Assembly (NCBI RefSeq): GCF_013410945.1 | Contig: NZ_JACCCH010000001.1 | Span: 558,001-622,000 of the forward strand | Source: Leifsonia sp. AK011 | GTDB taxonomy: Bacteria > Actinomycetota > Actinomycetes > Actinomycetales > Microbacteriaceae | Direction: 5' to 3' | Length of the DNA: 64,000 nt | In this document: one piece after another, positions 25,551 through 54,518 of the stretch | How the letters are laid out: every line of letters starts with the position of its first letter | Numbering within the stretch: the stretch's first letter is position 1 | Notes under the pieces: model-generated | Told to the model about the DNA's origin: nothing | The model's input: only the letters and a program-made list of their open reading frames with translations | The model's database searches: none | Program-made: the position numbers and the translations under genes

Positions 25551-26285
25551 CTACAGGCCAGCGATCAACTCGATCGCAGAGTCGTAGGTCGGGGGCATGA
25601 TCGCGGTCGACACCGTGACACTCTCCATGTCGTCGAGCGCGAGAAGTCGATGCCGGAGGCGGATCGCGTGCTCCTCGACGGTGGGTGCATGCACGACGCT
25701 CACGAACGTTCCGGTTTCGAGGATCGCGTTGGTCTGACCCGCGGCGAGCACCTCGGACAGCACGCGCGCGACCGCGCAGTTGCGGAGCACCCTGCGCCAG
25801 CCGGTGATCCGATCCCCCTCGATCGTGATGAGCCGCCAGGCATCGGATGCCGCGACCCCGGTCTCGCTCTGCTCCGCGTACATCTCCTTCAGCCGTGCCC
25901 CGAGGTATTCGCGGGTACGCAGTCCCGTGAGTGAATCGGTCGTTCCCGTGGCCAGGGCGGTGGTGGTGGCGATCTCTGTCCACTCCGTGGCGAACGCCCT
26001 GGCCACCGCGAACGGTGGCTCACCGGCATCCGCGGCCCGGTAGAGGGCGGCGAGGTCGAGGAGGCCCTCGGAGATGCCAACTCCGCGAGAGGCGCGGTCG
26101 GCTCCCAGAGCGCCGGCAGCTTCGTTCACACCCTCGCCCGCGAGGAGTGCCGTGACCATCGCGCCGACGGAGGTGCTGTACCAGTCGCCGGGGTGCAGCC
26201 AGCCATCCGCCAGTGCGACTGCCTGCCACTTGTCGGCGAGGAAAGGCGCACTGCCGGATGTGGCGGTGGTCTTGGGAACGTTCAT
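25551..26285 (-). CDS. Degenerate GGDEF-like cytoplasmic protein
   Basis: This 244-aa protein has no membrane segment. The N-terminal half (1-110) is an unrecognised helical region. At about residue 118 it has DSLTGLRTREYLGARLKEMY, which matches the opening of GGDEF diguanylate cyclase domains (DxLTGLxNRR). The catalytic GG[D/E]EF loop itself is missing: in its place the chain reads NAILETGTFVSVV. So it is probably a non-catalytic GGDEF relative that binds a nucleotide or protein. It is divergent from the membrane-tethered sigma gene and starts 4 bases after a long hairpin. No Shine-Dalgarno is visible. Confidence 0.6.
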   Translation of the reverse strand: MNVPKTTATSGSAPFLADKWQAVALADGWLHPGDWYSTSVGAMVTALLAGEGVNEAAGALGADRASRGVGISEGLLDLAALYRAADAGEPPFAVARAFATEWTEIATTTALATGTTDSLTGLRTREYLGARLKEMYAEQSETGVAASDAWRLITIEGDRITGWRRVLRNCAVARVLSEVLAAGQTNAILETGTFVSVVHAPTVEEHAIRLRHRLLALDDMESVTVSTAIMPPTYDSAIELIAGL

Positions 26286-26289
26286 CAGA

Positions 26290-26338
26290 AATGAGAGGGC
26301 AAAACCGCGTCATCATGACGCGATTTCTCCCTCTCATT
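26290..26338. promoter_or_regulatory. Nested perfect inverted repeat between the GGDEF-like gene and the sigma gene
   Basis: Outer arms AATGAGAGGG (26290-26299) and CCCTCTCATT (26329-26338), and inner arms CGCGTCA and TGACGCG (26306-26322) around a 3-base loop, are all perfect. The outer arm starts 5 bases before the GGDEF-like ATG. A separate 14-base perfect palindrome CACGCGCGCGCGTG follows at 26352-26365. Both fit operator or RNA-structure roles in the 172-base divergent spacer. Confidence 0.65.
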
Positions 26339-26457: not shown

Positions 26458-28899
26458 ATGCACTCACCGCAGGTCGACCCACGAAGCGACGCCGAGCTGA
26501 TCGCCGCCGTGCGATCCGGCGACCCTTCGGCGTTCGGCGTGCTGTATGCCAGGCATGCACCGGCGGCCACCGCGATGGCTCGCTACTACTCGCGGGACGA
26601 CTTCACCGCAGACGACCTCGTGAGCGACGCCTTCGAGAAGACGTACTCCACCCTGCGAGCCGGGGGAGGCCCCGACGTCTCATTCCGCGCCTACGTCTAC
26701 ACCGCGATCCGCCGCCAGGCCTACGAGCTCACGGAGAAGGGCCGTCGCACCCAGGTCACCGACGACTTCACGCCTTTCGAGATGCCCGAGGAGATCAACG
26801 ACCCGGCCGTCGACACCTTCGAGAACCGCATGGTCACGACGGCATTCGCCGGCCTCCCCGAGCGCTGGCAGGCGGTGCTCTGGTACCTCGAGGTCGAGGG
26901 GATGCGCCCGCCGGAGGTTGCCGTGCTGCTCGGGCTCACCGCCAACGGAGTTTCGGCTCTCGCCTACCGTGCCAGGGAGGGACTGCGTGAGTCCTACCTT
27001 CAGGCGCACGTTTCATCGGACTCCCGCACGGCCGAGTGTGAGGCGCTTCGCCGCAAACTGGGTGCCTACGCCAATGGCTCGCTCGCCGCTCGTGAATCGG
27101 CGAAGGTCGAGAAGCACGTCGAGGAATGCGCCGAGTGCTCCGCGATCCTCGTCGAACTCCGGGACGTCGGGCATGGACTTCGGGTCATCATCGCGCCCCT
27201 CATCCTCGGTGGCGCCGCGACGGCGGGTCTCGTTGGTGGTGCGCAGGCGAGCCCGGCGACTGCGGCGGCACTTCCCGGTCGGGGTGTGCGCAACGGGTCG
27301 CGGGTCAGCCTGGCCGTCGGTGCGGCGCTGGCGATAGCCGTCGTGGCGGCTGTCGCGGTCGTGGCATCCATCGCGCTCGCCCCGAGTGAGGACTCGGCCC
27401 TGGAGCAGCCGGCCGCACCGGCTGAGAGCTCGGCCCCGCTGAGCCCGTCGACTGCGCCCACGGCAACCCCGACTCCCACGCCGACGCCGACGCCGGTTCC
27501 CTCCGCCCCGCCGACGCGCACCGCGCCTCCCACTCCGCCGCCGGTCAGCCCGCCTACGCAACCGACGAAGCCCACGCCCACTCCGACTCCGACGGTCACG
27601 CCGCCGCCTGCTCTCCCCGAGCTCGAGGTGGCGATGGACGACCTGGGCGCCCTGGTGCTCGGTCGAGACGGCATGCTCGGGGGGCGCGCCACCAACGTTG
27701 GTTCCGGAGAGGCGAAGCAGCTCGTCATGACGTTCCGCCTCCCGGCGGGAGTGGATCTCGATTCCGTGCGTTCCGTCCGGTCCTCGGGCGTCGACTGGGC
27801 GTGCTCCCAGTCGGGCACGGATGTCGCGTGCAAAGCTGCCACGCTCGCCGCCGGTTCCTCCTCCACCGTCTACATCCCCGTGACGGTCTCGACGGCCGCC
27901 GACGTCGTGGAGGTGCCCGCCGTCGAGGTGCGCGCGCACAACGTGGGGCCCGTGGCGGCTGCGGCACCCTGGCCGGTTCTCGACCGCGGCCTCGGTACTC
28001 GCTTCGTCGCGGATGGGGCGCTCGCGTCGACCTCGGTCGGGGCATCCTTCCTGACCTGCGATGTGAGCCTGCCGGGCTGCGCTGAAGCACTGGCGCGCGA
28101 GGGCGATAGTACGGCGTGGAACAACCAGCAGTGGAATCTCATCGCAGAAGACGCCGCGGGCACTGGTTCCGTCTCATCGAGCACCACCCTCACGATGCCG
28201 CAGGGTGCCGACGTGGCGTTCGCGGGGCTGTACTGGTCGGCACCAGAACCGGCCGGCGATACGGATGCGGCGATCGGGTCGCTCACTCTTCGCTCCCCGA
28301 GCGGCGACTCCTCGCCGATCACCGCGGCCCGGGTCGACCGCACCATCGTCTCCGGTGTCGACAGCTACCAGGCATTCGCCGACGTGACATCCATCGTCGC
28401 GGCGGGGGGAGCCGGTTCCTGGGCAGCGAGTGCCCCGCGCATCGGACCGGGTGCCAGCGCAGTTCCCCTCGATGTCGTGGGGAGTGGGGTGAGCGCCGGG
28501 TGGGCTCTCGTGGTCGTGTACGAGGACTCCTCCCTGAGCGCGGGCCGCGTTGCCGTCTTCGACGGCTTCGAGCCCGTGACGAGTTCCGACGTGTCGTTTG
28601 TCGTCGCGGGACTTCCCAATTCGCAGGTCACCGCGGGCGTTGTTGCGTGGGAGGGTGACGCCGGAACCGGTGGAGACAGCCTGTCACTCGACGGGGTGAC
28701 GCTGGCCCGGTCCGAGGCCGACGCCCCGGCCGACAACCACTTCTACTCCTACGCGGTGGGCTCCGCCGTGGCGAACACTTTCGGGGTCGATGTCGGGAGC
28801 TTCCTTCCCACTCCGCTTGCCTCTTCTCGGGCCACACTCTCCGCGTCGACAACGGGCGATCAGTACGCCATCGGAGTGGTCACGGTCACCACGCGATAG
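26458..28899 (+). CDS. Membrane-tethered ECF sigma factor with fused zinc anti-sigma domain and large outer domain
   Basis: This 813-aa protein is a mosaic. Residues 12-95: sigma-70 region 2 (DAELIAAVRSGDPSAFGVLYARHAPA). 115-180: region 4 helix-turn-helix (LPERWQAVLWYLEVEGMRPPEVA). 194-227: zinc anti-sigma (zf-HC2) motif with Cys194, His220, Cys224 and Cys227. Then a hydrophobic segment at 241-264 and a clear membrane helix at 284-307. 315-387: Pro/Thr-rich wall-spanning linker with repeated TPTP. 388-813: extracytoplasmic beta-rich domain with paired Cys, first part DUF11-like. The sigma domains are cytoplasmic, so the sigma factor is held at the membrane. Release or a conformational signal would be needed for promoter use. 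The ATG has GGAG 8 bases upstream. A hairpin terminator follows. Confidence 0.88.
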   Translation: MHSPQVDPRSDAELIAAVRSGDPSAFGVLYARHAPAATAMARYYSRDDFTADDLVSDAFEKTYSTLRAGGGPDVSFRAYVYTAIRRQAYELTEKGRRTQVTDDFTPFEMPEEINDPAVDTFENRMVTTAFAGLPERWQAVLWYLEVEGMRPPEVAVLLGLTANGVSALAYRAREGLRESYLQAHVSSDSRTAECEALRRKLGAYANGSLAARESAKVEKHVEECAECSAILVELRDVGHGLRVIIAPLILGGAATAGLVGGAQASPATAAALPGRGVRNGSRVSLAVGAALAIAVVAAVAVVASIALAPSEDSALEQPAAPAESSAPLSPSTAPTATPTPTPTPTPVPSAPPTRTAPPTPPPVSPPTQPTKPTPTPTPTVTPPPALPELEVAMDDLGALVLGRDGMLGGRATNVGSGEAKQLVMTFRLPAGVDLDSVRSVRSSGVDWACSQSGTDVACKAATLAAGSSSTVYIPVTVSTAADVVEVPAVEVRAHNVGPVAAAAPWPVLDRGLGTRFVADGALASTSVGASFLTCDVSLPGCAEALAREGDSTAWNNQQWNLIAEDAAGTGSVSSSTTLTMPQGADVAFAGLYWSAPEPAGDTDAAIGSLTLRSPSGDSSPITAARVDRTIVSGVDSYQAFADVTSIVAAGGAGSWAASAPRIGPGASAVPLDVVGSGVSAGWALVVVYEDSSLSAGRVAVFDGFEPVTSSDVSFVVAGLPNSQVTAGVVAWEGDAGTGGDSLSLDGVTLARSEADAPADNHFYSYAVGSAVANTFGVDVGSFLPTPLASSRATLSASTTGDQYAIGVVTVTTR

Positions 28900-52360: not shown

Positions 52361-53329
52361 TTAGGCCGTGCGACGACGCGCGATGACAGCACCGGCGACC
52401 ACGAGCAGGGCGCCGAAGCCGACGAGCATGCCCAGGTTGCCGTTGTCCGACCCGGTTGCCGCGAGGACGGGCTCCGGAGCAGGCGCGGGGGCCGGAGCGG
52501 GTGCCGGGACGATAAGGATCGACTCGGAGTAGATGTTGTCCTCGGGGGACTCGCCGTTCGGGTCGGGGTTGATGACCGAGAGCACCTCGGCCGACGCGAA
52601 GTCGGTGATCGGGGCGGAGATGATGTCCTCGTTGATGCCCCAGACCTGGCCGGCGGAGTCGAAGGCGATCGCGTACGGCACGACGTCGCCGAAAACATCC
52701 TCGGCAAACGTGGTGAAGGCTCCGGTCGTGGTGTCGACCGTGTAGAAGTCCTCGGTGCCAACGTTGTACGCGTAGACCGTCTTCGTCACGGAATCCCATG
52801 CCAGGCCGTAGTTGTCCGACTCGTCCGTTACGCCGGTCGGGCCGACCTCGGTGAGTGCGGCGGTGGAGAGGTCGAGGGAGTAGAGGACGTCGGGGCTGAC
52901 GCTCCACGACGTTGCCCAAGCATTGCCCGCTGCATCGATCGCAATGGCGATCGGGGTGTAGTAGGGCTCGCCCTCGATCGTGAACTGCCCGACGACAGTG
53001 TTCTCTCCCGTAGTGAGGTCGACCGAGATGAGGTACCCTTCACTGTTCGCCCAGGAGATCCAATAGCCGAGGCCGTTGACCGGGTTGTAGGCGGCGGGCC
53101 CAGCGCACGCGAACACATCGGTGTCCGGGTTCTCCCAGTCGCCGACCTGCGTGGCCACGCCGGTGGTGGTGTCCACCTCGTAGAGCAGGCCGTTGAATTC
53201 ATCGCTGTCGCACGGCAGGATGTAGGCCTTGTCGCCCGCCGGAAGTGATGCTGCGTTCGCGGGCGATGCCGCGAACGTGAGTGCCGCGATGCCGACGAGT
53301 GCGGTGGCCACGCCAAGAGTTCTGCGCAC
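52361..53329 (-). CDS. Secreted beta-propeller-like surface protein with LAATG sortase signal
   Basis: This 322-aa protein has a signal peptide (RRTLGVATALVGIAALTFAASPANAA) and repeated beta-propeller-like strands with recurring TTGV/YNVGTEDFYTVDTTTGA units, as in NHL/SMP-like folds. It ends with an acidic Pro/Ala linker (PAPAPAPAPEP), the cell-wall sorting signal LAATG (residues 289-293), a hydrophobic stretch and ARRRTA. LAxTG is the class E sortase type of actinobacteria. It should be covalently wall-anchored. The GTG start has a strong Shine-Dalgarno (AAGGGGA). No sortase gene is in the window. Confidence 0.87.
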   Translation of the reverse strand: MRRTLGVATALVGIAALTFAASPANAASLPAGDKAYILPCDSDEFNGLLYEVDTTTGVATQVGDWENPDTDVFACAGPAAYNPVNGLGYWISWANSEGYLISVDLTTGENTVVGQFTIEGEPYYTPIAIAIDAAGNAWATSWSVSPDVLYSLDLSTAALTEVGPTGVTDESDNYGLAWDSVTKTVYAYNVGTEDFYTVDTTTGAFTTFAEDVFGDVVPYAIAFDSAGQVWGINEDIISAPITDFASAEVLSVINPDPNGESPEDNIYSESILIVPAPAPAPAPAPEPVLAATGSDNGNLGMLVGFGALLVVAGAVIARRRTA

Positions 53330-53414
53330 AGGTGTCCCCTTTAATCTATTACCTGAGAATGTTCTGGGAAATGTATCATAAAGAGCCCATGAGGTAGCGC
53401 GGTACTCTGGTGGC

Positions 53415-54518
53415 GTGACGGCCAATACCTCAAGCTATGCCCGCGCAGGAGTCGACACCGAGGCCGGTGACCTCGCCGTCGAACTCATGAAGGCTGCGGT
53501 GAGCCGCACCCACGGCCCGGAGGTCTTCGGTGGTGTCGGCGGTTTCGCGGGCATGGTGGATGTCTCGTTCCTCAAGTCCTACGACCGCCCCCTGCTCGCC
53601 ACCTCGACAGACGGCGTCGGTACCAAGGTCGCGATCGCACAGGCGATCGACAAGCACGACACCATCGGCCAGGACCTCGTCGGCATGGTCGTCGACGACA
53701 TCATCGTGGTCGGCGCGAAGCCCTACTTCATGACGGACTACATCGCCTGCGGCAAGGTCGTACCGGAGCGCATTGCCGAGATCGTCCGTGGCATCGCGGA
53801 GGCGTGCGAGGCGACCGGCACCGCACTCGTCGGCGGCGAGACGGCCGAGCATCCCGGGCTCCTGGGGCCGGACGACTACGACGTCGCCGGTGCCGCGGTG
53901 GGCGCCGTGGATGCAGCGGACCTGCTCGGCCCGGAACGTGTGCGCGAGGGCGACGTGGTGGTGGCGCTCGCGTCATCCGGACTCCACAGCAACGGCTTCT
54001 CGCTCGTGCGCCACATTCTGCGCGAGCGCGGTCTCGCGTTCACCGACCGGTCGGATGAGCTCGGCGGACTCGTGGGCGAGGTGCTGCTCGAGCCGACGCG
54101 CCTCTACACGTCCCCGTTGCTAGCCCTGCTCGCTGCGCAGCCGGGCGCCGTTCACTCGCTCAGCCACGTGACCGGCGGCGGAATCGCGGCCAACCTCGCC
54201 CGTGTACTACCGAAGGGGAGTTGGGTCGAACTCGAGCGCTCCACGTGGTCGCCCCCCGCGGTGTTCCGCACCCTGTCGGATTTCGCTGGGTCAACGCTCG
54301 AGAGCAGCGAGGGCACCTGGAACCTGGGCATCGGAATGTTCGCGGTGGTCTCGGCGGATGCTGCGGCAGCGACGATCGCGGAGCTGGAGGCCGATGGCAT
54401 CCCCTCGTGGGTCGCCGGAACGGTCTCGCTGGGCGCGCGCCCGGACGCGGACTGGTCGCAGGGTGCGAAGGGCGTCGACGGCGGTGCCGTGCGACTCACC
54501 GGACGCTACGCAGACTGA
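53415..54518 (+). CDS. purM: Phosphoribosylformylglycinamidine cyclo-ligase (AIR synthetase)
   Basis: This 367-aa enzyme closes FGAM to AIR with ATP. Motifs: YARAGVDTEAGDLAVELMK near the start, LLATSTDGVGTKVAIA, DLVGMVVDDIIVVGAKPYFMTDYIACGK, and the Gly-rich HVTGGGIAANLARVLP. GTG 53415 has TACTCT 6 bases upstream (53403-53408), which fits a leaderless transcript. Its stop codon lies in a 17-base tandem repeat (54514-54558). The DUF3073 gene, a frequent neighbour of purM in actinobacteria, faces it from the other strand. Confidence 0.97.
   Translation: MTANTSSYARAGVDTEAGDLAVELMKAAVSRTHGPEVFGGVGGFAGMVDVSFLKSYDRPLLATSTDGVGTKVAIAQAIDKHDTIGQDLVGMVVDDIIVVGAKPYFMTDYIACGKVVPERIAEIVRGIAEACEATGTALVGGETAEHPGLLGPDDYDVAGAAVGAVDAADLLGPERVREGDVVVALASSGLHSNGFSLVRHILRERGLAFTDRSDELGGLVGEVLLEPTRLYTSPLLALLAAQPGAVHSLSHVTGGGIAANLARVLPKGSWVELERSTWSPPAVFRTLSDFAGSTLESSEGTWNLGIGMFAVVSADAAAATIAELEADGIPSWVAGTVSLGARPDADWSQGAKGVDGGAVRLTGRYAD

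What the first reader, a model, noticed from the sequence alone, without database searches (positions are those of the whole stretch)
26458..28899. One-chain membrane signalling device: ECF sigma, zinc anti-sigma, membrane span and 420-residue outer domain
Seen: sigma regions 2 and 4, the C194/H220/C224/C227 zinc motif, a membrane helix at 284-307, a TPTP-rich wall-spanning linker and a large extracytoplasmic part, all in one 813-aa frame with no stop. Known: ECF factors are normally soluble and held by a separate anti-sigma; C-terminally extended ECF groups have been described in actinobacteria. Inference: an outer signal must cleave or rearrange the chain to free the sigma domains, so this would be a complete outside-to-promoter pathway in one gene.
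Basis: partly seen in the sequence, partly recalled or inferred. Interest (0 to 1): 0.78.

Follow-up and report, generated by a model that had tools for sequence, protein, structure and literature searches.

The report
Membrane-tethered sigma factor with adhesin-like sensor
One bacterial protein carries a gene switch (sigma factor), its built-in zinc lock, a membrane anchor and a large outer domain resembling parts of surface proteins; this layout is a known actinobacterial type (ECF48/52/53), and the outer domain is a version of it that I did not find described.

Summary
ORF 26458-28899 (+) is one uninterrupted 813-residue frame holding sigma regions 2 and 4, a zinc anti-sigma domain (C194/H220/C224/C227, invariant in 14 aligned sequences), one membrane helix (~285-305), a Pro/Thr linker and a 425-residue outer part. 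It is not a fusion artefact: Nonomuraea has a collinear full-length homologue (34% over 791 columns, E 4e-94), and a Micrococcales genome has a syntenic 491-aa orthologue (purA-chorismate mutase-X-ECF-purL). The outer part is a DUF11 module plus a ~300-aa DUF3344-like domain, with two conserved cysteine pairs; the second module is otherwise found in surface-type proteins such as one of Thermus. Relatives keep the sigma/zinc/membrane core and swap the outer part (Ig-like Big_6, ricin lectin, DUF11-like, DUF11+DUF3344-like, or none, as in a second copy in this genome). Most likely an outer signal triggers stepwise proteolysis that frees the sigma part. Ligand, proteases and target genes are unknown. 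New variant of a known kind.

The parts
26458..28899 (+). whole gene, 813 aa: ECF sigma - zinc anti-sigma - membrane helix - Pro/Thr linker - DUF11 - DUF3344-like
   Evidence: collinear homologue
26542..26748 (+). sigma region 2 (residues 29-97)
   Evidence: PF04542 1.8e-9; AF2 pLDDT mostly 73-95, fold matches sigmaE/SigW
26830..26979 (+). sigma region 4 (residues 125-174)
   Evidence: PF08281 1e-5; AF2 pLDDT mostly 87-92
27037..27138 (+). zinc anti-sigma domain, C194/H220/C224/C227 (residues 194-227)
   Evidence: PF13490 7.6e-8; the four ligands invariant in 14 aligned sequences
27178..27234 (+). conserved hydrophobic helix, residues 241-259 (L241, G251 invariant), probably cytoplasmic or at the membrane face, not a full span
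27310..27366 (+). membrane helix, residues 285-303
   Evidence: mean Kyte-Doolittle 2.79, best in protein
27379..27621 (+). Pro/Thr-rich linker, residues 308-388
27688..27915 (+). DUF11 Ig-like module, residues 411-486, Cys pair 449/458
   Evidence: PF01345 1.3e-4, just under cut-off; Cys pair conserved in L001 and L017
27970..28896 (+). DUF3344-like outer domain, residues 505-813, Cys pair 534/541
   Evidence: PF11824 weak 0.014; homologues in Nonomuraea (2e-14) and Thermus (6e-17 to 7e-8); the Thermus HB8 protein matches PF11824 at 3.9e-6; shared motifs
26290..26338 (.). 49-bp inverted repeat in the divergent intergenic region upstream of the gene; possible operator or hairpin, role unknown

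Best explanation
It is a membrane-tethered ECF sigma factor of the regulatory-extension type (ECF52/53-like). The zinc domain fused behind sigma region 4 folds back and holds the sigma part inactive at the inner face of the membrane. The membrane helix and wall-crossing Pro/Thr linker display a DUF11 + DUF3344-like sensor outside. An outer event (ligand binding, wall contact, or pulling or unfolding of the sensor) lets a site-1 protease cut the outer part; a site-2 (M50) protease then cuts at the membrane, the zinc domain is degraded or rearranged, and the sigma part binds RNA polymerase and turns on its genes, possibly for surface proteins. Shown here: the layout, the conserved zinc ligands, single-span topology by sequence, conserved outer cysteine pairs, an M50 protease in the genome. 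Inferred: autoinhibition, the order of proteolysis, the signal, the targets.
For: Domains and invariant zinc ligands. The modelled sigma part resembles SigW and sigmaE as crystallised with their anti-sigma factors. Collinear homologue in another order. Exactly three Cys inside (zinc) and two pairs outside, same pattern in Nonomuraea, as expected for disulphides outside. Related outer domain in a Thermus protein that starts with a signal-peptide-like sequence. One M50 protease in the genome, 5.7e-45. Published precedents: SCO4117/ECF52, where deleting everything but the sigma part has a milder effect than deleting the whole gene and its own gene is still activated (PMC5826349); review assigning ECF48/52/53 to proteolysis (PMC8999054); IutY release by Prc and RseP (PMC5411451). 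Some relatives sit beside pilin or sortase-substrate genes.
Against: No direct evidence of cleavage, of a ligand or of a regulon. M50 proteases are near universal (14 of 14 control genomes), so its presence says little. One copy in the same genome has no outer domain, so the outer sensor is not obligatory for the core. The AF2 model does not tell whether the zinc domain packs on the sigma part.
Confidence: 0.72

Rival explanations
1. Conformational (non-proteolytic) switch: signal passes through the membrane helix and opens the zinc domain while the sigma factor stays tethered and transcribes at the membrane.
For: ECF41-type extensions are thought to work by conformational change (review); intact chain conserved.
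Against: A single helix and an 81-residue Pro/Thr linker would transmit conformation poorly (inference); IutY and SCO4117 precedents favour release.
Confidence: 0.15
2. Mainly a surface protein: the outer domain is an adhesive or structural module and the sigma part reports its state (assembly, load, damage), rather than sensing a soluble ligand. This concerns what is sensed and can be true together with proteolytic release.
For: DUF11/DUF3344-like modules come from surface and stalk proteins; relatives sit beside SpaA pilin and LAETG protein genes on plasmids.
Against: No binding data; no surface gene lies directly beside this gene; outer domains vary widely between relatives.
Confidence: 0.3
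3. Two products: the outer part is also made from an internal start.
For: In-frame GTG at codon 277 lies just before the membrane helix, with a weak G-rich stretch upstream.
Against: No good ribosome-binding site; collinear chain conserved.
Confidence: 0.05
4. Frameshift or assembly error joined two genes.
For: None found.
Against: Same full chain in Nonomuraea, same core-to-DUF11 chain in the syntenic orthologue, uniform codon-position GC.
Confidence: 0.01

Closest known systems
ECF52 sigma factors, e.g. SCO4117 of Streptomyces coelicolor (PMC5826349)
   Same: ECF sigma + zf-HC2 zinc domain + membrane region + Pro-rich linker + outer domain in one chain; actinobacterial
   Different: SCO4117 outer module is a carbohydrate-binding module (smart00776); here DUF11 + DUF3344-like. 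Group assignment not computed: no ECF group models or SCO4117 sequence at hand
ECF48 and ECF53 sigma factors (review PMC8999054)
   Same: C-terminal fused zinc anti-sigma, one to two membrane helices, regulatory extensions up to about 400 residues
   Different: The extension here is about 620 residues; reference sequences not available for comparison
IutY of Pseudomonas putida (ECF243; PMC5411451)
   Same: sigma and anti-sigma in one membrane protein, freed by stepwise proteolysis
   Different: anti-sigma domain lies in the periplasm rather than in a cytoplasmic zinc domain; Gram-negative siderophore system with an outer-membrane receptor
RsgI-SigI systems of cellulolytic clostridia (from my own knowledge)
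   Same: outer sensor modules shared with the surface machinery they regulate
   Different: separate sigma and anti-sigma genes; sigma not ECF type

Membership tests
ECF sigma factors | sigma regions 2 and 4 only, ECF-type profile match | tested here: met
   (TIGR02937 7e-17, over cut-off)
Class I zinc anti-sigma domain (ZAS / zf-HC2) | H-x3-C-x2-C with upstream Cys | tested here: met
   zf-HC2 7.6e-8 over cut-off; ligands invariant in 14 sequences
ECF with regulatory extension, ECF48/52/53 layout | fused zinc domain followed by membrane helix and outer extension, in Actinobacteria | tested here: met
   layout as described
ECF52 (SCO4117 group) specifically | carbohydrate-binding module at the C-terminus | tested here: not met
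   Pfam finds DUF11 and weak DUF3344, no carbohydrate-binding module
ECF52 or ECF53 by phylogeny | sigma domain clusters with the group's reference sequences | not testable with these tools
   no reference sequences or group models; tree of 25 relatives only
DUF11 (PF01345) | score over curated cut-off | tested here: inconclusive
   22.7 vs 24.6 bits
DUF3344 (PF11824) | score over curated cut-off | tested here: not met
   15.5 vs 27.2 bits; related through the Thermus protein (27.1 bits, 3.9e-6), hence 'DUF3344-like'
Proteolytically released sigma factor (IutY-like mechanism) | release of an N-terminal sigma fragment by site-1 and site-2 proteases | not testable with these tools
   only the presence of one M50 protease was shown

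The most novel reading that the evidence does not exclude
A sigma factor whose sensor is a fibrillar-adhesin module, so that the cell reads the state of its own surface fibres (contact, tension, assembly) straight into transcription: a mechanosensing or adhesion-sensing one-chain sigma factor.
Probability: 0.12. Interest if true: 0.8.

Novelty: new variant of a known kind. Interest (0 to 1): 0.42.

Why it matters
It shows a modular receptor family: a fixed sigma / zinc-lock / membrane core with interchangeable outer domains (lectin, Ig-like, DUF11-like, DUF3344-like, none). That makes it a natural series for learning what such sigma factors sense, with a syntenic short orthologue and an outer-domain-free copy in the same genome as ready-made controls.

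Tried and rejected
Frameshift or assembly fusion (rejected). Internal start for the outer part (no good site). Two-span topology with the outer part inside (unlikely). Solved-structure match for the outer part by sequence: none at E 1; NCBIfam for the outer part: none. AF2 on the outer domain alone: not usable (pLDDT 33); in the full-length model the outer part after the DUF11 region is also below pLDDT 50, so its fold was not tested. Viral contigs gave no relative of the outer domain. The DUF3344 profile finds nothing in the own genome at E 0.01, not even this gene. Genome-wide surveys of relatives failed because of tool errors, so frequency across Microbacteriaceae was not measured. Papers combining 'sigma factor' and DUF3344: none; 'ECF sigma factor' with a term beginning DUF11 gave 10 papers, none with a title or abstract on such a fusion (not read in full).

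Full report
Observation. The frame 26458-28899 (+) encodes 813 residues without a stop. GC at third codon positions is 0.75-0.92 in every 60-codon block, so the frame looks coding from end to end. Pfam gives Sigma70_r2 (29-97), Sigma70_r4_2 (125-174, a hair under its cut-off), zf-HC2 (194-227), DUF11 (411-486, just under its cut-off) and a weak DUF3344 (571-771); TIGR02937 sigma70-ECF is over its cut-off. AlphaFold2 with 14 sequences models the sigma regions and the zinc-domain helices well (pLDDT mostly 70-95, with a weak loop at about 100-115), leaves the membrane part and everything beyond about residue 476 unmodelled, and the sigma part matches SigW and sigmaE chains from their anti-sigma complexes, Z 12-13.

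Is it one real gene? Yes. Nonomuraea gerenzanensis, in another order of Actinomycetes, has the same chain from sigma to the outer domain (L017 2531-4867, 779 aa; 34% identity over 791 columns, E 4e-94). A Micrococcales MAG has the orthologue in the same neighbourhood, purA - chorismate mutase - divergent uncharacterised gene - ECF - purL, but ending after DUF11 at 491 aa. Thirteen loci were recovered from genome contigs, twelve of them Microbacterium.

Topology. Besides the clear span at 285-303 there is a conserved, weaker hydrophobic segment at 241-259 (L241 and G251 invariant). It scores as unfavourable for insertion in all relatives scanned, and it does not stand out in Nonomuraea. Arg 275/278/282 precede the span, as expected for a cytoplasmic side. 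The protein has exactly seven Cys: three zinc ligands inside and two pairs outside (449/458, 534/541); Nonomuraea has the same pattern and the 491-aa orthologue has the first pair. This fits one span with an oxidised outer part. It is inference from sequence, not an experiment.

The outer part. Residues 505-813 have relatives in Nonomuraea, Deinococcus and Thermus. The Thermus HB8 protein starts with a signal-peptide-like sequence and carries DUF11, SdrD_B and DUF3344 matches. Shared motifs are AGLYW, AFADVT, AGW(A/S)LV and EGD. A published survey places DUF11 among stalk modules and a DUF3344 cluster among fibrillar surface proteins of ambiguous function (PMC9210967). Its fold could not be tested: on the single sequence AF2 failed, and the relatives I had came from sources that the structure tool does not accept.

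A receptor-swapping family. With the same core, Microbacterium and Arthrobacter alpinus members carry Big_6 Ig-like domains, Streptomyces plasmid members a ricin-type lectin, Paenarthrobacter and the MAG a DUF11-like end that Pfam does not call (my reading of the sequence and Cys pair), and the window and Nonomuraea proteins DUF11 + DUF3344-like. The window genome holds a second core (347 aa) that stops shortly after the membrane helix, between NucS and a UDP-GlcNAc 2-epimerase. In the tree that copy groups with Microbacterium, while the window protein falls with the MAG, Nonomuraea, Arthrobacter/Paenarthrobacter and Streptomyces sequences (98/95; inner order unsure, long branches). Two plasmid members lie near SpaA pilin-related genes and one beside a LAETG surface-protein gene. 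This hints at surface-protein targets; no statistics were possible.

What is known. ECF48, ECF52 and ECF53 are described with this layout and proposed to be freed by proteolysis (PMC8999054). SCO4117 (ECF52) has zinc finger, membrane region, Pro-rich linker and carbohydrate-binding module; a strain left with only the sigma part is less affected than the full deletion, and an excision model has been proposed (PMC5826349). IutY gives the experimental precedent for release by a site-1 and a site-2 protease (PMC5411451).

Mechanism. Best supported: built-in zinc lock, outer sensor, stepwise proteolysis, free sigma. The genome has one M50 protease, which is compatible but weak evidence. The ligand, site-1 protease and regulon are unknown. 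The upstream 49-bp inverted repeat (26290-26338) may be an operator; half of it recurs in the corresponding region of the syntenic locus, not tested further.

Verdict. Real and correctly described, but a new variant of a known kind rather than a new kind of device. Limits: no survey across the family (search tool failed), no ECF-group models, no structure of the outer domain.

Noticed in passing
window 26290-26338: Near-perfect 49-bp inverted repeat (10- and 7-bp arms) in the intergenic region between two divergent genes; the half ATCATGACGCGAT recurs in the syntenic locus L001 at about 4842.
   Followed up: partly
window 25551-26285 (-): 244-aa divergent gene with no Pfam match and a GGDEF-like 'DSLTGLRTREYL' stretch; its relative sits at the same place in L001 (33% identity).
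   Followed up: partly
window 52361-53425 (-): Surface protein with an LAATG sorting-like end and weak DUF4394/DUF6923 matches; a possible but untested target.
   Followed up: partly
L015 1477-2520 (own genome C1, about 407.8-408.8 kb): Second sigma + zinc domain + membrane protein, 347 aa, with no outer domain, between NucS and a UDP-GlcNAc 2-epimerase.
   Followed up: yes
L002, L009, L013: Microbacterium loci with two copies of the sigma gene within a few kb; in L009 one copy is a bare 200-aa sigma factor without the zinc domain.
   Followed up: partly
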